In this document: positions 1,462 to 8,872 of the stretch, in pieces | Position numbering within the stretch: position 1 is the stretch's first letter | Layout of the letters: every line of letters begins with the position of its first letter | DNA from: Sphaerochaeta sp. | GTDB lineage: Bacteria > Spirochaetota > Spirochaetia > Sphaerochaetales > Sphaerochaetaceae | Reading direction: 5' to 3' | Assembly: GCA_003446545.1 (NCBI GenBank) | Contig: DMAO01000160.1 | Location: 1 to 9,611, forward strand | Length of the DNA: 9,611 nucleotides | The notes under the pieces: generated by a model | Told to the model about the DNA's origin: nothing | Seen by the model: the letters and a program-made list of their open reading frames with translations, nothing else | The model's database searches: none | Translations under genes and position numbers: made by a program

Positions 1462-2208
1462 TCATGTGAACAACGTATCTTCAACAGTACTAGCAGAAGT
1501 CCCATAGGCCTGCAGCTGCTCTTCAATGCGTTTCAGGTACCCCTGCATCTTGCACTTCCTTTCCAAGCCCTTGTCATTCATATACCTGACATTGCCGAAG
1601 ATCGCTCGTTCAGTCCAAGGTCGGTAAAGCACCAGGCAACGCCTGCAAAGCCATTGGGATCGCTGCCATCCATCTGGTACTTGTTTTTGAGATAGAGCTC
1701 TGTAGTGAAAGCCTCTTGGGGAGTCTTGCCCCATTCCAGGATTTCCTTTCCCCGGTACATGCGCTTGTAGATGTGGATGGTACCAAGTTCGACAAGCCCC
1801 TTCTGGGCGGTATTCCAGTATTTGTCATGGGCCTGGGCACTCTCAAGCTGTTCCCTAGAGTAGAGGTAGGCTCGTTCATCACCCTGATGTTTGGCTAAGG
1901 TCATACGATCCCACTGTAGTAACCCTTCGTACGAATCGTACAGGGCATTATAATAGACAAAGTTCATTGCCAGTTCCCGACGGACTATCAGTTCCTCAAG
2001 AAAGGGGGCAACATCAGATAGACCTGTCTTCATCACCTCGTGATAGATGGCCACCGGTCTTATCATGCCATAGGCGGACAAGCAATGGTATCCCCATTGC
2101 TTTCAAGGCCCTTTCCCGTCCTTCCATCCCTTCCAACATGAAGCGGTAATGCCGTCTGCTGGCTTTTGGGAATGCACCGGTTATGCCAAAGTTTTCAGGT
2201 AGGGGCAA
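1462..2208 (-). pseudogene. Decayed class II CPD photolyase (deoxyribodipyrimidine photo-lyase)
   Basis: Three reading-frame pieces together resemble a class II DNA photolyase, the FAD enzyme that splits UV-induced cyclobutane dimers. Piece one (about 2190-2085) carries RRHYRFMLEGM, from the N-terminal domain. Piece two (about 2081-1630) begins LSAYGMIRPV, like the family's LSPYLHFG segment. It continues through [28 protein letters not shown] and [12 protein letters not shown] of the FAD-binding domain. Piece three (about 1630-1462) has [16 protein letters not shown] and the C-terminus. Class II enzymes are about 450 residues. Here the first part of the gene and the stretch between GIP and LSAYG, well over 100 residues, are missing. 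The frame changes near 2080-2088 and again near 1621-1632. Conserved positions are also altered, for example MYR where MYW is usual. It cannot encode a working photolyase. Neighbours are arcA (convergent) and usp (upstream, same strand). Confidence 0.85.
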
Positions 2209-2239: not shown

Positions 2240-2649
2240 CTACTTCTTCTCTTTTTCTGGGACGATGATCACAATGCATTTTGCATATTTAACGATGTGC
2301 ACTGCCACTGACCCTACAAACATAGACCAACCTGAATGAGTCGCTCGGGAGATGATGATGGTATCCATACCATTTGACTCTGCATATTCGAGTATGGTCT
2401 CTCCTGCCTGGCCAAAGCCTACATGTTCCTTCACACTATACCCTACAAGTCGCTTTGCAGCCGATTCCAGCATTGGCAGGGTTTCCTTCACCACCTTCTC
2501 CGTCTCATAGAGGGCTTCAGGAGACTTGTAATCTTCACGAACAGTCAGAAGCGTTATATTCACCTCCTTTGGACAAAAAGTTCCTTGACGAGCTGTACTG
2601 ATTGGAGACTTCTCTCCGTTCCATCAAGCGGTACTAGGATGTTCTTCAT
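2240..2649 (-). pseudogene. Universal stress protein (UspA family) with a one-base frameshift
   Basis: Translation from the ATG at 2649 begins MKNILVPLDGTERSLQSVQL, the usual UspA opening (beta strand 1 and the DG turn). It is preceded by GGGGGAG at 2653-2659. After KELF the frame runs into a stop (VQRR*) at once. If one base is added to the T5 run (forward A5, 2575-2579), it continues CPKEVNITLLTVRE and runs to KEKK at 2240. The repaired protein would be 136 residues, a normal UspA length. Usp proteins bind ATP or act in stress survival. Here the ATP loop region reads ISRATHSGWSMFVGSV, so the first glycine of the G-2X-G-9X-G(S/T) motif is missing and ATP binding is doubtful even if repaired. 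The break could be a real mutation, a homopolymer sequencing error, or (less likely) a -1 slip on CTTTTTG. The internal GTG at 2563 has no well-placed ribosome site. Confidence 0.8.
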
Positions 2650-2671
2650 AGGCTCCCCCTTTCTGAATCAT

Positions 2672-2808: not shown

Positions 2809-3708
2809 TCATCTTTGCCTATACATGGTGATTCTTTCCGAAAAGCTATCGAGATTTTCCAATCCCTGTATTGGGTTATCCCCTAAGGGGATCAGCTCTA
2901 GGGAAGACTCCGGGAACGAGTTGGCGATTCTTTCCATTTGCTGTGATTGCTCAGAACCCTTGTTTACTAGTATCTTGCTGATGCTTATGGAAAGTGATTT
3001 CAGCTGTTCTTTGATCATGAGGCTTTCGGAAAAGCTCAGATCATCTTCGTTGAGCACCAGACATATTTCGGTAATCTCTGTATCCATCAGTTGTTCCTTG
3101 AGCTTAGCATAACGTTTTTGCATACGGATTAACCTGCCAAAGATAGGATCTTCACTCAGAGTGTTGAGATTCTCTTTTCTGATATTGGCGATACAATTCT
3201 TTTTCTGAACGATTTCCTCCCTCATCCCTATCAGATGATCGACCCAATGGAGGTTTACGGATGGCAACGCCAGAGTTTTCAGGGTGAGAGCGGTGGGAGG
3301 CGTATCGATAAGCACTTCATCGTAGCGGTTCTCTGAAAAACATTGTTCCAGAACCAACAATGAGGCGTATTCTTCCATACCAGGTGCAAATTTCAGAATG
3401 TTGAAGTATTTGTCGATATTAAGGGCTTGCTGGTAGTGGTACAGACCTTTCAGTTCCTTCCTAATGGAAGCCATATACTCTCGACTTCTCTTGTCTAGGT
3501 CGAATTCGCTGAGAGAGAGATTTGATGTTACCTTTGTCTGTTTCTCCCCCAGCCTAGTCTCGAAGAGGTCATGCAGGTTATGGGCCGGGTCCATTGAAAC
3601 CAATAAGACTTTCTTTGCTTTGTCTTTTGCAAAGCGGATAGCCTCCATTGAAGAACTGGTCGACTTCCCGACTCCGCCTTTCCCAATATACATATGTAGC
3701 TGTGCCAT
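2809..3708 (-). CDS. ArsA/Get3-family P-loop ATPase (single domain)
   Basis: This 299-residue cytosolic ATPase belongs to the deviant-Walker-A (SIMIBI) class. GKGGVGKST is at residues 9-17, the switch I motif DPAHNLHDLF at 40-49, and the switch II-like DTPPTALTL at 135-143, matching the DTAPTGHTL of ArsA and Get3. It has one ATPase domain and would act as a dimer, unlike the two-domain ArsA of arsenite pumps. No CxxC zinc motif of Get3 is present and its few cysteines are scattered, so a role in arsenite export is not supported; no arsB, arsR or arsC is nearby. Its ATG shares a base with the stop of the 95-residue gene (TAATG), and GGGAG precedes it, so the two are translationally coupled. 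In this cluster it probably serves assembly, membrane targeting or gating of the CstA transporter or its small partners. That role is inference; the ATPase call itself is firm. Confidence 0.88.
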   Translation of the reverse strand: MAQLHMYIGKGGVGKSTSSSMEAIRFAKDKAKKVLLVSMDPAHNLHDLFETRLGEKQTKVTSNLSLSEFDLDKRSREYMASIRKELKGLYHYQQALNIDKYFNILKFAPGMEEYASLLVLEQCFSENRYDEVLIDTPPTALTLKTLALPSVNLHWVDHLIGMREEIVQKKNCIANIRKENLNTLSEDPIFGRLIRMQKRYAKLKEQLMDTEITEICLVLNEDDLSFSESLMIKEQLKSLSISISKILVNKGSEQSQQMERIANSFPESSLELIPLGDNPIQGLENLDSFSERITMYRQR

Positions 3709-3995
3709 TAGGGTTCTCCCATGATGCTTGCAAGTTCACTGAGCCCATTTCCTGTCTGTGAGGAGCGAAGCAGCATCCGATCCAAATCATCCGCCATGAC
3801 TGGCAAGAGGTCCAGTGCCAAAGGCATCGGAGGTGAGGGTAACCCCACAAAATTCCCAAACAACATAAGGGTAAAGGAGTTTTCCATCTCCTTGATTTCA
3901 TATTCTATCTGAGCCGTAGCCTTGTACATCGAAGCGGTGTGAATGCCTCCCAGAAATTCGCCTACGACATTGGCAAGGTGTCTAATCATTTTCAT
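3708..3995 (-). CDS. Small protein of unknown function between membrane protein and ArsA-type ATPase
   Basis: The product is 95 residues from the ATG at 3995, chosen because TGGAGT (4001-4006) precedes it at good spacing and because an earlier start at 4064 would lie deep inside the upstream gene. The start overlaps the upstream stop by 14 bases and the stop overlaps the next start by one base. The protein has no clear membrane helix. An amphipathic N-terminal half (residues 1-40) leads into a hydrophobic stretch, LMLFGNFVGLPSPPMPLALDLLP (43-65), with a GLPSPP turn, and then a polar tail. It vaguely resembles the short proteins, some ending in Cys-Cys, that I recall beside ArsA-type ATPases, but it ends in MGEP and has no cysteine. 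I do not recognise it with confidence. The tight coupling suggests it works with the ATPase, perhaps as its substrate or adaptor. Confidence 0.75.
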   Translation of the reverse strand: MKMIRHLANVVGEFLGGIHTASMYKATAQIEYEIKEMENSFTLMLFGNFVGLPSPPMPLALDLLPVMADDLDRMLLRSSQTGNGLSELASIMGEP

Positions 3996-4437
3996 CAAGC
4001 ACTCCAAAGCTTTGCAGTTCTTTCTGATAGGTAGCCCTGGAAGGGAAAATGGAATAGATCCCATAGAGTCCTAGTAGAACCGACAAATACAGATGGTAGG
4101 TATAGATGGGAAGGTAATATGCAAAAAGCATAAAAAACTCACCGATGCCTACAGAAGAAATGACCAATCGCTTCATACGCAGGAAATCAGAGAGGTGCAA
4201 TCCCCCTTCTCTTGATCCTTTCTGGAAATATCCTGTCCTAAGAAGTATGGGAATGCCAATTGCAAAAAGAGTGACACCCAACATGGCCATTACTGAATTG
4301 ATCCTGTCTGCTTCCATTGCGCTTTGCACATTGGGAAAGAACCTGTGTACTAGGGAAACAAGGAGCAATCCGAAAAGAATCAAAGCAATCATGCTGTAGG
4401 ATTGTCTTCGAATTGTGAGAAAATCACGTTTATCCAT
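3982..4437 (-). CDS. Membrane protein of unknown function, four predicted helices
   Basis: The 151-residue product has a basic N-terminus (MDKRDFLTIRRQS), then hydrophobic segments at about 15-34, 48-68, 90-109 and 112-130, and a short acidic C-terminus (LDEND). Four transmembrane helices with both ends in the cytoplasm would fit the positive-inside rule. AGGAAG lies nine bases before the ATG at 4437. I recognise no catalytic motif or family. It begins 85 bp after cstA ends, separated by a hairpin, and overlaps the next gene by 14 bases, so it heads the membrane protein/small protein/ATPase block. It is probably an accessory component of the CstA system, perhaps the membrane partner of the ArsA-type ATPase. 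That role is inferred from gene order alone. Confidence 0.78.
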   Translation of the reverse strand: MDKRDFLTIRRQSYSMIALILFGLLLVSLVHRFFPNVQSAMEADRINSVMAMLGVTLFAIGIPILLRTGYFQKGSREGGLHLSDFLRMKRLVISSVGIGEFFMLFAYYLPIYTYHLYLSVLLGLYGIYSIFPSRATYQKELQSFGVLDEND

Positions 4438-4471
4438 ACTGAGATACTTCCTATGCAGGAAAACTTTTGCA

Positions 4472-4499
4472 ACAGGACAGCCAGAATCGGCTGTCCTGT
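4472..4499 (-). terminator. Perfect 11-bp hairpin between cstA and its downstream genes
   Basis: ACAGGACAGCC (4472-4482) pairs perfectly with GGCTGTCCTGT (4489-4499) around a 6-base loop, 23 bases after the cstA stop. On the minus strand the following bases are TGCAAAAGTTTTCC, so the T tract is weak and delayed. It may be a leaky terminator or a 3' stabilising stem. Either would give more cstA mRNA than mRNA for the three downstream genes. Confidence 0.6.
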
Positions 4500-4522
4500 A
4501 CGGATATTTTGAAAAATGATAC

Positions 4523-6271
4523 CTAAGCCATACTCGGTTCTGGAATCACTTTTCCTACTTTTCTGAACAATGCCTTAAAACTTTCGAAAGCGACAAAGAC
4601 AACAATGAGAATGATGATGAGATTGATGGAACCCAGCAAGACCTGGCCAGTTGCAAAATATGTGATCTCATTGCTGATAAGTGCCCACGTTGTCATGAAC
4701 ATCATGAAGCATGCAGGAATGAAGGTTACGAGATATTTCGTTCCCTTGGATTGTTTGAGATACACCGAGGCGGTAAACAAAGCAAGGGCAGCCAGAGCTT
4801 GGTTGTTTGCCCCGAATAACGGCCAGAGAGCCAAAGCCCCTGTACCCCCTACCCCTGTTGAGAATGCCAAAATGAGTGCAGTGATCAGCGCAAGGATGGT
4901 GGCTCCGTATTTGTTTGTGAAGAAGGTCTTTTTTTCAGAAGCCCCAACACGGTTGGTACCAAGCAATTCTTGGATGACATACCGCTGAAGGCGAGCAGTT
5001 GTATCGAGAGAGGTCCCGGCAAAGGAGGCCACAAAGACACCCATGATAATCAAACCAAAAGATTGGGGAATACCAAGATAACTGATCATATTGGCAGACC
5101 CTTCGACAAATGCACTGACTTTTGCACCAAGCCCTGCAGCGGTACTCCAGGATGCATAGTGTTCCGTCCATTTTGCCATACCTGTAAGGGCTGTGGTGTC
5201 ACCACGGGCAGCAAGTCCGATACCAGCTGTTGTCGCTATGATTACCAGTACGGAAAGGGCCCCTTCCATCAACATGGAACCGTATCCGACAAATTTGGCA
5301 TCCTCTTCCCGTGCAACTTGTTTGGCTGTTGTTCCCGAGGCTACTACGGCGTGGAATCCAGAAATGGCTCCGCAGGCGATGGTGATAAAGAGGAAAGGCC
5401 AAAGGGAGGGTGCTCCCTCAGGCGTTGCCTGTACGGTAGGGGCTACAAAATGCAAGCCACTGAATGATGCGAAAACTATACCAAGTATCAACAGGGCCAT
5501 CGCAACAAACAGTTCCCAAGCGTTGATATAATCCCTAGGTTGCAACAAGGTTGTTACAGGAAGGGTTGAAGCGATAAAGGCGTATATGAACAAGATGATT
5601 GTCCAAGTCCCTGTTGCAGGCATACCTCCAATTGCCGGCATGTCAAGGGGAACCCAATGGCCAAGAACAACAAAAACGTACATTGCCAAAACGGCTATAA
5701 AGGTGACTTTTGTCACATTCGCGTTTCGTTTATAGATTGCACGCCCCAACATGATAGCAATAGGAATCTCCATCCAAACAGGTAATACAGCTTGTGGATA
5801 CATATGGAAAATTACCGCGATGATCATTCCCAGGATAGCGAGGAATAGCCACAGCTCGATGAATACGATGAGGAAGAAGACATACCGAATTCTTTTGCTT
5901 ACGTATTGGGCAGAAATCTCAGAGATTGATTTCCCCTGGTTTCTCAAGGACATGACCAAGGCTGAGAAGTCATGTACGGCCCCCATGACAATTGATCCGA
6001 CAAAGACCCAGATCATAGCTGGAACCCAGCCCCAAATGACTGCGATTGCAGGCCCTACGATAGGGCCTGTACCGGCAATAGAGGTAAAATGGTGGCCAAA
6101 GATGATACCTTTCTTTGTTGGTACATAGTCTATACCATCTTCGAATTCTTCAGCAGGGGTTTTGTTCTTGTCAGAAAGCTGAAAAATCTTTTTCCCGATA
6201 AACTCACCGTATAGTTTGTATGCGATGATATAGCCGACAAAGGCCAATACCATGATCAATACAACGTCCAT
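4523..6271 (-). CDS. cstA: Carbon starvation protein CstA family transporter
   Basis: CstA-family proteins are inner-membrane importers tied to carbon starvation, proposed for peptides and, in the BtsT branch, shown for pyruvate. The 582-residue product is almost wholly hydrophobic with many transmembrane helices. It shows the family signatures FGHHFTSIAGTGPIVGPA (58-75), MGAVHDFSALVMSLRNQGKS (96-115), SGTTAKQ...GYGSMLMEG in the middle and ASFAGTSLDTTARLQRYV towards the C-terminal third. It is shorter than E. coli CstA (about 700 residues), as is common in anaerobes and Gram-positives. AAGGAGG (6277-6283) stands five bases before the ATG and a strong promoter lies just upstream. E. coli cstA and btsT are each followed by a tiny YbdD/YjiX partner; none is seen here. 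Instead an unrelated-looking membrane protein, a small protein and an ArsA-type ATPase follow. The family call is secure, the substrate unknown. Confidence 0.95.
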   Translation of the reverse strand: MDVVLIMVLAFVGYIIAYKLYGEFIGKKIFQLSDKNKTPAEEFEDGIDYVPTKKGIIFGHHFTSIAGTGPIVGPAIAVIWGWVPAMIWVFVGSIVMGAVHDFSALVMSLRNQGKSISEISAQYVSKRIRYVFFLIVFIELWLFLAILGMIIAVIFHMYPQAVLPVWMEIPIAIMLGRAIYKRNANVTKVTFIAVLAMYVFVVLGHWVPLDMPAIGGMPATGTWTIILFIYAFIASTLPVTTLLQPRDYINAWELFVAMALLILGIVFASFSGLHFVAPTVQATPEGAPSLWPFLFITIACGAISGFHAVVASGTTAKQVAREEDAKFVGYGSMLMEGALSVLVIIATTAGIGLAARGDTTALTGMAKWTEHYASWSTAAGLGAKVSAFVEGSANMISYLGIPQSFGLIIMGVFVASFAGTSLDTTARLQRYVIQELLGTNRVGASEKKTFFTNKYGATILALITALILAFSTGVGGTGALALWPLFGANNQALAALALFTASVYLKQSKGTKYLVTFIPACFMMFMTTWALISNEITYFATGQVLLGSINLIIILIVVFVAFESFKALFRKVGKVIPEPSMA

Positions 6272-6306
6272 AGCGTCCTCCTTAGATTTTTTTTGAAACC
6301 ACTTTC

Positions 6307-6335
6307 ATTAAACACCCATTGGTTTTGGATGTCAA
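6307..6335 (-). promoter_or_regulatory. Strong sigma-70 promoter of cstA
   Basis: On the minus strand a perfect -35 TTGACA (6330-6335) and a -10 TTTAAT (6307-6312) are 17 bases apart. AT-rich sequence upstream (about 6336-6370) could act as an UP element. Transcription would begin near 6300 and give a short leader of about 29 bases containing an A8 run and the AAGGAGG ribosome site. I see no CRP-like or other clear operator. Confidence 0.75.
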
Positions 6336-6556: not shown

Positions 6557-6680
6557 TTACCAAAGTATCATCGCAGGGTTCAGTGCCTTCTTCGCCGCTT
6601 GACCCGATACCATGCTTGCCACTAGTCTTTCCTTCCAGTTTACCAACTATACAAGCATACAATTCAAAGAGGAGCTTCCC
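6557..6680 (-). pseudogene. Relic of the 3' end of a glcD-like FAD oxidase gene
   Basis: The sequence matches the 3' end of the intact glcD gene at 7454-7640 with many substitutions. Shared blocks include the stop and last codons (ACCAAAGTATC, 6560-6570), a GCCTTCTTC..CCGCTT block (6584-6600), and CAGTTTACCAACTATA.AAGCATACA around 6640. In protein terms it still reads YACIVGKLEGKTSGKHGIG, against YAFIVGKLGGKISGEHGIG in GlcD. About 20 bases near 6570 and about 50 bases near 6600 are deleted relative to the intact gene. The remaining 5' part of the gene is absent. It is non-functional and probably the remnant of a duplicated or paralogous dehydrogenase gene. Confidence 0.8.
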
Positions 6681-6842
6681 TCGCCAAGTATACCTCCATT
6701 CCTACCGAGAACAGACTGGTAGTCTACACCAGGGTGAGTAACCAAAAGATGCTGTTTAACCTTCATGAACTGGTTGCTGAGTTTACGATAAGGGAGTTCC
6801 GAGCCTACAGACAAACATGTAACTAGGTGTTATTGTACGCCT

Positions 6843-7453: not shown

Positions 7454-8872
7454 CTACCAAAGTATCTTCCCAGGATTCATGATCGCCGCAGGATCAAGTG
7501 CTTTCTTCACCGCTTCAAAGAGCCTGTACTCAGAGGGAGGGGTCAGGCTCTTCAGGTAAGCCCTTCTCTTCAATCCAATGCCATGCTCCCCGCTAATCTT
7601 TCCTCCCAGTTTACCAACTATAAAGGCATACAGTTCAGTGAGGATCTTCGGCTCAAGATCATGCCATGTCTCCAGACTGCTTTGCGGGTTCTTCACTATC
7701 GTGGCATGGAGATTGCCGTCCCCTGCATGCCCGTAGCAGGGTATGGTGACATCATACTTCTCAGAAAGACGCTTGAGTTCGGGGAGCACACGGGGAATGG
7801 AGCCGATTGGGACAACGACATCCTCCAGGCTTTGGACAGGGCTGTACACCTTGATGGCTTCGGCGATGTTCCTTCTTACCGACCATATCCGTTCCCTGTT
7901 GGAAGCATCCTCGGCGATATACACCTCCATCGCCCCTTGCTGAAGACACAGATCCCCAACTGCTATGAGCTCACGTTCGACCTGATCTTCATCAGAGCCG
8001 TCAATCTCGATGAGCAACATCGCCCCCACACCCTCCAGGGGGAGGCTCTCGTTGAGGTAGGAGCAGGTCATCTCTATTGAACTCCGGTCCATGAATTCAA
8101 TGCTGGTGGGGATTATCCCCCCCTTCATGATCAGGGGGACCACTGAGATTGCATCCTGAGCACTCTTGAAGGGAACCAGAAGGTCAGAAGCAACATTGGG
8201 TATACCCAACAGCCTGATGGTAGCCTTGGTAATGACCCCCAAGGTACCCTCTGATCCAATGTACAGTTGCTTCAGGTCATAGCCACTGACATCCTTGGTG
8301 ACCTTGCCCCCCAGCTCCACTATCTCACCCTGGGGTGTCACCACCTCCAAGCCCAGGACGTACCGACCTGTCACACCATACTTGACCGCTTTTCCCCCAC
8401 CTGCATTTTCTGCTATGTTGCCACCTAGGAAACAGGTCTCAAGGCTCATGGGGTAGCCTGCAAAAAACAACCCCTTTCCTTTCAGCTGCTCATTGAGCTC
8501 ATTGGTCACAATGCCAGCCTCAGATGTGACAGTCAGGTTGGCCTCATCAATCTCCAACACCCTGTTCATCTTCTCAAGAGAGAGTACTATTCCCCCAAAC
8601 AACGGGATGGCTCCTCCGGAGAGCCCCGAGCCGGCCCCGCGTGGGGTTACCGGGATTACGTACTTTGTAGCAAGTCTCATGATAGCAGCTACCTGCCCTA
8701 CATCAAGGGGCGTAAGCACCACCTCCGGCATATGGGCATATTCCTCAACTGAGGTCTCATCATGGCTGTAGTGTTCCATCTTTTCAGTATCGGTGATCAG
8801 ATTCCTGGCACCTACTATCTTCTCTAGCTCTTCGATAATCTCTTTCGTAAGGCGTGTATAGGAAGTGCTCAT
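7454..8872 (-). CDS. glcD: GlcD/LctD-type FAD-dependent 2-hydroxyacid (lactate or glycolate) dehydrogenase
   Basis: This FAD flavoprotein oxidises a 2-hydroxyacid such as D-lactate or glycolate to the 2-oxoacid. The 472-residue length is typical. The FAD-binding_4 domain (about 47-220) has PRGAGSGLSGGA (77-88), GGNIAENAGG (150-159), GVTGRYVLGLEVV (166-178) and IGSEGTLGVIT (205-215). The FAD-oxidase C domain (about 224-470) has the metal/substrate motif GHAGDGNLH (381-389), SGEHGIG (427-433) and the closing DPAAIMNPGKILW. The ATG at 8872 follows AAGGAG at good spacing and overlaps the etfA stop as ATGA, so the two are co-translated. Because its direct neighbour is EtfA rather than GlcE/GlcF, electrons probably pass to an electron-transfer flavoprotein, as in LctBCD-type lactate dehydrogenases. 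Lactate is the likelier substrate, but sequence alone cannot decide this. Confidence 0.92.
   Translation of the reverse strand: MSTSYTRLTKEIIEELEKIVGARNLITDTEKMEHYSHDETSVEEYAHMPEVVLTPLDVGQVAAIMRLATKYVIPVTPRGAGSGLSGGAIPLFGGIVLSLEKMNRVLEIDEANLTVTSEAGIVTNELNEQLKGKGLFFAGYPMSLETCFLGGNIAENAGGGKAVKYGVTGRYVLGLEVVTPQGEIVELGGKVTKDVSGYDLKQLYIGSEGTLGVITKATIRLLGIPNVASDLLVPFKSAQDAISVVPLIMKGGIIPTSIEFMDRSSIEMTCSYLNESLPLEGVGAMLLIEIDGSDEDQVERELIAVGDLCLQQGAMEVYIAEDASNRERIWSVRRNIAEAIKVYSPVQSLEDVVVPIGSIPRVLPELKRLSEKYDVTIPCYGHAGDGNLHATIVKNPQSSLETWHDLEPKILTELYAFIVGKLGGKISGEHGIGLKRRAYLKSLTPPSEYRLFEAVKKALDPAAIMNPGKILW

What the first reader, a model, noticed from the sequence alone, without database searches (positions are those of the whole stretch)
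2809..6335. CstA transporter operon with an ArsA/Get3-type ATPase and two unknown small proteins
In the sequence, a promoter is followed by cstA, a four-helix protein, a 95-residue protein and a deviant-Walker-A ATPase, all on one strand. The last three overlap end to end. Known CstA/BtsT carriers work with a tiny YbdD/YjiX partner and no ATPase. Arsenite-pump genes are absent, and the ATPase is single-domain with no CxxC. I infer a CstA-linked module in which the ATPase inserts, activates or energises the transporter through the two small proteins. I vaguely recall small proteins beside ArsA-type ATPases in other genomes, so part of this association may already be catalogued; its mechanism is, to my knowledge, not described.
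Basis: partly seen in the sequence, partly recalled or inferred. Interest (0 to 1): 0.72.

Follow-up and report, generated by a model that had tools for sequence, protein, structure and literature searches.

The report
ATPase-linked CstA transporter operon variant
A spirochaete operon encodes a CstA-type nutrient transporter together with an ArsA/Get3-type ATPase and two small proteins; the ATPase likely acts as an ATP-operated switch for what is probably a pyruvate transporter, and while such transporter-ATPase operons were already reported in 2010, the four-helix protein marks a lineage that carries it where other lineages carry a different small protein.

Summary
In detail: four minus-strand genes, cstA (6271-4523), a four-helix protein (TM4, 4437-3982), a 95-aa protein (3995-3708) and a single-domain ArsA/Get3-type ATPase (3708-2809), the last three overlapping. 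The core idea is not new: Castillo & Saier 2010 (PMC2963123) described CstA-CstX-ArsA operons, some archaeal ones with CstY, and proposed that ArsA energises CstA through CstX. The 95-aa protein is most likely CstX. New here: (1) of 108 CstX loci, all have the ATPase, 49 TM4, 45 CstY, none both; TM4 and CstY loci fall on separate CstA branches, so TM4 is an undescribed alternative to CstY. (2) The ATPases lack the zinc CxxC (3 of 105 have one) and the hydrophobic segment of two Get3 references, so a Get3-like insertase is unlikely. (3) A hairpin follows cstA in 55 of 71 testable loci (controls 7 of 94 and 11 of 102). (4) Five loci carry a BtsS-like kinase/LytTR pair upstream of cstA with most pyruvate-binding residues kept. 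Best reading: a CstA carrier switched by ATP, probably for pyruvate. Whether ATP gates or drives transport is undecided. New variant of a known kind.

The parts
6307..6335 (-). promoter-like element TTGACA-N17-TTTAAT before cstA
   Evidence: read; the scan finds promoter-like sites no more often than chance, so not shown
4523..6271 (-). cstA, CstA-family transporter, 582 aa
   Evidence: PF02554 469 bits against a cut-off of 27
4472..4499 (-). 11-bp perfect hairpin with a 6-nt loop in the cstA-TM4 gap, no T-run; likely attenuator or mRNA end
   Evidence: gap MFE -26.8 kcal/mol, z -4.2
3982..4437 (-). TM4, four-helix membrane protein of no named family, 151 aa
3708..3995 (-). CstX-like 95-aa protein, predicted helical hairpin (helices 2-50 and 57-81)
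   Evidence: place between cstA and the ATPase
2809..3708 (-). single-domain ArsA/Get3-type ATPase, 299 aa
   Evidence: TIGR00345 above cut-off; P-loop and switch residues

Best explanation
The four genes encode a CstA-family transporter, likely a pyruvate importer, that is probably switched on by a dedicated ArsA/Get3-type ATPase which is predicted to dock on it through the small helical-hairpin protein CstX. Shown here: CstX and the ATPase are linked in 108 of 108 loci; the ATPase keeps both P-loop lysines and the switch-I Asp but lacks the zinc CxxC and the hydrophobic helix-8 segment of Get3; TM4 and CstY exclude each other; the parts diverge in step; a hairpin follows cstA. Inferred: CstA moves the substrate with ions, as E. 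coli BtsT does; an ATP-bound ATPase homodimer binds CstX, and CstX, helped by TM4 (or by CstY in the other lineage), passes the closed state on to CstA and opens or activates it; hydrolysis releases it. The hairpin would keep CstA in excess over its accessory proteins, which suits a reusable switch better than a fixed energising subunit. TM4 would be the membrane clamp of this lineage.
For: Linkage: ATPase in 108 of 108 CstX loci, same strand; in 15 genomes all 16 ArsA/Get3-type hits of 100 bits or more lie at CstX loci, next best 45 bits, and two Sphaerochaeta genomes with CstA but no CstX reach only 30 bits. None of 20 CstA loci picked for lacking CstX has an ATPase or CstX nearby (one of them, L158, ends 331 nt after cstA). 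ATPase core intact in 105 of 105, CxxC in 3 of 105, Get3 client segment replaced. TM4 49, CstY 45, both 0 of 108 (43 TM4 loci have 700 nt or more after the ATPase, 44 CstY loci show the TM4 site). Distances of the parts correlate, r 0.67-0.93. Hairpin after cstA in 55 of 71 against 7 of 94 and 11 of 102. Kinase/LytTR pair with R72, R99, C110 of BtsS in 5 of 5 linked kinases.
Against: No binding, ATP hydrolysis or transport was measured. Get3 comparison rests on two reference sequences. Correlated distances also follow from shared descent. The window's hairpin has no T-run, 35 of 71 have one, and it could only stabilise cstA mRNA or end a cstA transcript. The kinase pair is at 5 of 107 loci, not at the window; one of the five (L070) has Ala at the S113 position, a change that impaired BtsS, and kinases elsewhere carry the same residues. 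TM4 and CstY are both missing in some complete-looking loci, so neither is essential. Locus L092 has TM4-CstX-ATPase without cstA.
Confidence: 0.4

Rival explanations
1. The ATPase drives CstA: ATP hydrolysis powers uptake, with CstX as the coupling subunit, as Castillo & Saier proposed and as ArsA does for ArsB.
For: Published proposal; intact ATPase core; strict linkage; ArsA-ArsB precedent.
Against: E. coli BtsT is a pyruvate/H+ symporter (PMC7730263, passages), so the carrier family needs no ATP; the hairpin after cstA suggests fewer ATPases than carriers (inferred).
Confidence: 0.3
2. The ATPase is a Get3-like targeting or assembly factor that brings CstX, TM4 or CstA into the membrane.
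For: Same ATPase family as Get3; small membrane proteins encoded beside it; a hairpin protein could serve as its receptor (inferred).
Against: CxxC in 3 of 105, and the client-helix segment less hydrophobic and more charged than in 3zq6 in 105 of 105; CstA occurs without it at 20 of 20 picked loci.
Confidence: 0.18
3. The neighbourhood is chance, or the ATPase is an arsenite pump part that drifted next to cstA.
For: Only the family name ArsA. Acr3-type pumps exist elsewhere in three of six genomes and an ArsB in one of six.
Against: 108 of 108 linkage over bacteria and archaea; no ars gene in the window; no ArsB, and no Acr3 over cut-off, in the window's genome (82.8% complete).
Confidence: 0.02

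Closest known systems
CstA-CstX-(CstY)-ArsA operons of Castillo & Saier 2010 (PMC2963123)
   Same: CstA, a ~90-aa CstX, a single-domain ~300-aa ArsA homologue, no ars genes in the operon
   Different: TM4 stands between cstA and cstX and CstY is absent; the paper reports CstY only in archaea, and its main text has no mention of hairpin, terminator or pyruvate
E. coli CstA-YbdD and BtsT pyruvate importers (PMC5847655, PMC7730263; passages)
   Same: CstA family with a small partner gene beside it
   Different: No ATPase; YbdD family in 0 of 392 Spirochaetota genomes; CstX and YbdD not similar
Get3/TRC40
   Same: ATPase family, P-loop with signature lysine
   Different: No CxxC, client-helix segment not hydrophobic, switch II reads DTPPT or similar instead of DTAPTGHT
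ArsA of arsenite pumps
   Same: ATPase family paired with a membrane carrier
   Different: Single domain, no ars genes beside it, carrier of another family

Membership tests
CstA-CstX-ArsA module (Castillo & Saier 2010) | cstA in the operon | tested here: met
   PF02554 E 2.8e-140
CstA-CstX-ArsA module (Castillo & Saier 2010) | single-domain ArsA homologue of about 300-330 aa | tested here: met
   299 aa, one P-loop, TIGR00345 above cut-off
CstA-CstX-ArsA module (Castillo & Saier 2010) | CstX of about 90 aa between or beside them | tested here: met
   95 aa, and homologues in the same place in Thermococcus and Staphylothermus loci L117, L126, L137; the paper's own CstX sequences were not compared
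CstA-CstX-ArsA module (Castillo & Saier 2010) | CstX has a single transmembrane segment | tested here: inconclusive
   hydropathy peak 1.22 in the window, under the threshold of 1.4 used; one segment in 67 of 108
CstA-CstX-ArsA module (Castillo & Saier 2010) | no ars genes in the operon | tested here: met
   window genes
CstA-CstX-ArsA module (Castillo & Saier 2010) | CstY (optional) | tested here: not met
   no CstY in the window; TM4 instead
Get3/TRC40 | GKGGVGK P-loop and switch-I Asp | tested here: met
   105 of 105 P-loop; Asp in 99%
Get3/TRC40 | zinc CxxC (role recalled) | tested here: not met
   absent in the window; 3 of 105 have a CxxC. One of the two Get3 references, 3ug6, also shows none in the segment used
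Get3/TRC40 | hydrophobic client-binding helix 8 (role recalled) | tested here: not met
   0 of 105 as hydrophobic as 3zq6
Get3/TRC40 | Get1/Get2-like receptors and tail-anchored clients | not tested
   -
ArsA arsenite pump | arsB or acr3 in the operon, two ATPase domains | tested here: not met
   genome-wide
CstA/BtsT with a YbdD/YjiX partner | PF04328 gene | tested here: not met
   0 of 392 Spirochaetota genomes, the window's included
CstA/BtsT with a YbdD/YjiX partner | pyruvate transport | not testable with these tools
   indirect only: BtsS-like kinases at 5 loci

The most novel reading that the evidence does not exclude
A new way to couple ATP to nutrient uptake: an ArsA/Get3-fold dimer that has lost client binding works, through a helical-hairpin adaptor (CstX) and one of two interchangeable partners (TM4 or CstY), as an ATP-operated gate or motor on a CstA pyruvate carrier, and a hairpin after cstA keeps it scarcer than the carrier, in bacteria and archaea alike.
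Probability: 0.35. Interest if true: 0.8.

Novelty: new variant of a known kind. Interest (0 to 1): 0.5.

Why it matters
CstA carriers are widespread and linked to pyruvate, and their ArsA-type partners have stood without a tested function since 2010 as far as my searches show. An ATPase of the Get3 fold that gates or drives a carrier without a client groove would be a new use of the fold and a new coupling of ATP to uptake. The TM4/CstY split gives two natural versions of one machine, and genomes G401 and G407 hold both, so the question can be tested directly.

Tried and rejected
Tried without result: Foldseek of the CstX and TM4 models against the PDB gave no match at E <= 0.001. CstX profile against YbdD: no similarity. 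No solved structure resembling E. coli CstA or YbdD by sequence. Rfam on the window: none. Paper searches for cory-CC-star, YjiX with BtsT, CstA with Get3, Get3 with ArsA and carbon starvation, CstA with anion-transporting ATPase: none held. CstA with ArsA, and CstX with CstA, gave only PMC2963123; 'carbon starvation protein' with ArsA gave that and one more paper seen as a listing only. A first helix-8 test by regular expression kept 27 of 105 family sequences and did not separate them from the two Get3 references; I replaced it by an alignment-column test on all 105. That TM4 is undescribed rests on Pfam and NCBIfam and these searches; it has no name to search for, and supplements were not read.

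Rejected: arsenite pump, chance neighbour; Get3 insertase as the leading reading. Promoter and terminator counts of the window equal chance and are not used. No structure of the ATPase was predicted; the two jobs went to CstX and TM4.

Rows dropped: 6 copies (L109, L111, L118, L128, L133, L134) before all counts from then on; CstA pieces under 400 aa (96 of 102 used); ATPases of 250 aa or less (105 of 109 used); L066 in the CstX conservation count; L065, L066, L079, L085, L096 in the distance correlations; gaps under 35 nt (71 of 102 tested; some short gaps are start-codon mis-calls, e.g. L067, whose gap does hold the hairpin); gaps cut at 300 nt in three loci. Only 80 of 151 loci were kept by the tool.
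Full report
What is there. On the minus strand lie cstA (6271-4523), a 151-aa membrane protein that I call TM4 (4437-3982), a 95-aa protein (3995-3708) and a 299-aa ATPase (3708-2809). CstA matches PF02554 (E 2.8e-140) and the ATPase TIGR00345 above its cut-off. The 95-aa protein matches NCBIfam 'cory-CC-star' weakly (E 8.7e-6, under the cut-off), and 42 of 42 aligned relatives match that model at E <= 0.01. TM4 has no family.

Already published. Castillo & Saier 2010 (PMC2963123; abstract, passages, sections 3.2 and 3.12 seen) found 26 CstA-ArsA associations, 24 with a ~90-aa CstX, five archaea with a ~210-aa CstY, no arsenic-resistance genes in these operons, and proposed that a single-domain ArsA energises CstA with CstX as linker. 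The 95-aa protein fits CstX by length, place, and homologues in Thermococcus and Staphylothermus loci; the paper's own sequences were not compared.

Survey. CstX occurs in 27 of 392 Spirochaetota genomes, CstA in 225 of 392, YbdD/YjiX (PF04328) in 0 of 392. A scan of species genomes gave 151 CstX loci, of which the tool kept 80. With 33 loci cut from whole genomes and the window, less 6 copies, 108 loci remain. ATPase: 108 of 108, same strand. CstA: 102; five of the six misses lie within 420 nt of a contig end, one (L092) is real within its locus. TM4 49, CstY 45, both 0, neither 14. Contig ends limit this: 43 of 49 TM4 loci have 700 nt or more after the ATPase, 44 of 45 CstY loci show the site where TM4 would stand, and among the 14 'neither' loci L075 and L091 are cut before cstX and L078, L088, L120 and L135 soon after the ATPase. 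Among named loci TM4 occurs in Bacteroidota, Thermodesulfobacteriota, Spirochaetota, Myxococcota, Acidobacteriota, Calditrichota, Ignavibacteriota and Chlorobiota, CstY in Thermoproteota, Methanobacteriota (Thermococcus), Spirochaetota, Thermodesulfobacteriota and Bacillota. The loci were found through CstX, so CstX-less systems are not seen. Of 20 CstA loci picked because no CstX was found there, none has an ATPase or CstX nearby; two have a divergent CstY-like gene; one (L158) ends 331 nt after cstA.

Two lineages. In a quick CstA tree of 117 rows, 43 CstY rows plus one 'neither' form one branch with support 100, and 41 TM4 rows with ten 'neither' and four solo rows another, also 100. Genomes G401 and G407 each carry one system of each kind, and their CstAs sort by system, not by genome. 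Pairwise distances of the parts correlate at r 0.67-0.93, with 0 of 300 permutations as high; shared descent contributes. TM4 is thus an alternative to CstY, lost or unrecognised in some Bacteroidota, Calditrichota and Thermodesulfobacteriota. A profile finds 127 TM4 relatives at E <= 0.001 among the 7996 candidates scored. The model has four long helices and a short fifth (pLDDT 88); five positions are invariant in 36 members. CstX is predicted as a helical hairpin round a conserved GLPSPP turn (pLDDT 79, pTM 0.55).

The ATPase is dedicated. In 15 genomes, 16 TIGR00345 hits of 100 bits or more all lie at CstX loci; the next best has 45 bits; two Sphaerochaeta genomes with CstA but no CstX reach 30 bits. 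Among 105 ATPases GKGGxGK[ST] is in 105, DPAHN in 101, CxxC in 3, DTAPTGHT in 0. The segment aligned to helix 8 of two archaeal Get3 proteins is on average 39% charged against 12% (3zq6) and 18% (3ug6), and none of the 105 is as hydrophobic as 3zq6. That helix 8 binds clients and that CxxC binds zinc in Get3 is recalled; one of the two references shows no CxxC in the segment used. This argues against a tail-anchor-type insertase. No ArsB match, and no Acr3 match over the cut-off, exists in the window's genome; among five further genomes three have an Acr3 over the cut-off and one an ArsB, away from the module.

Hairpin. The genes after cstA are packed (median gaps -4 nt TM4-CstX, 2 nt CstX-ATPase, -4 nt ATPase-CstY), but cstA is set apart (median 82 nt to TM4; starts are mechanical). 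The gap after cstA folds below z -2 in 55 of 71 testable loci (TM4 32 of 37, CstY 22 of 32, neither 1 of 2) against 7 of 94 regions just upstream of cstA and 11 of 102 inside cstA; a T-run follows a stem in 35 of 71. The window's hairpin (4499-4472) has no T-run. I infer a partial terminator or mRNA end that makes CstA more abundant than its accessories; an internal promoter for the later genes is not excluded. The E. coli cstA-ybdD gap gave z -1.7 by simple shuffling.

Substrate. In 5 of 107 neighbourhoods (74 with at least 2.6 kb upstream of cstA) a 5TM-LYT histidine kinase and a LytTR regulator stand upstream of cstA on the same strand: in four the regulator ends 88-111 nt before cstA, in L087 about 1.4 kb before. 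Of the BtsS residues that bind pyruvate (PMC10653868, passages), R72, R99 and C110 are kept in 5 of 5 and S113 in 4 of 5; L070 has Ala there, a change that impaired BtsS. In G291 and G027 the linked kinase is the only PF07694 match. Two kinases elsewhere in G382 and G026 keep the same residues and one in G382 does not, so the residues mark BtsS-like sensors in general; five of the ten loci of that check gave no usable match. The window has no such pair; upstream of its cstA lie an FAD-linked oxidase gene and an ETF alpha gene, which resemble lactate dehydrogenase-ETF pairs (recalled). E. coli CstA needs YbdD for pyruvate uptake (PMC5847655, passages).

Mechanism. Shown: linkage, conserved ATPase core, missing Get3 features, TM4/CstY exclusion, hairpin. 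Inferred: ATPase dimer, docking on CstX, action on CstA, pyruvate, excess of CstA. I put gating at 0.4 and energisation at 0.3, because of the implied excess of CstA and because E. coli BtsT is a pyruvate/H+ symporter (PMC7730263, passages); no test here separates them.

Noticed in passing
window 6603-6719: A decayed copy of the end of the FAD-linked oxidase gene (7454-8872) lies upstream of cstA: 56% identity over 39 columns with a stop inside.
   Followed up: partly
window 2240-2660: The universal stress protein gene is split: the ORF matches only positions 33-141 of PF00582, and its beginning reads in another frame; pseudogene or assembly error.
   Followed up: no
window 1578-2081: Photolyase fragment: the ORF covers positions 273-426 of 453 of TIGR00591; no intact gene in the window.
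   Followed up: no
L066, 3026-5137: Two ATPase genes in tandem (325 and 327 aa) at a divergent CstX-CstA locus, as the 2010 paper reports for two organisms.
   Followed up: no
L092, 2500-6156: TM4-CstX-ATPase without cstA within the locus.
   Followed up: partly
L073, 6297-7772: A gap of 1474 nt between cstX and the ATPase gene; its content was not looked at.
   Followed up: no
L156 and L157, upstream of cstA: A CstY-like gene stands divergently beside a cstA that has no CstX or ATPase nearby.
   Followed up: no
E. coli L172:3683-3880 and NCBIfam NF041419: YbdD ends in Cys-Cys, and the name 'cory-CC-star' suggests a Cys-Cys-stop end (my reading of the name), although CstX and YbdD show no similarity.
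   Followed up: partly
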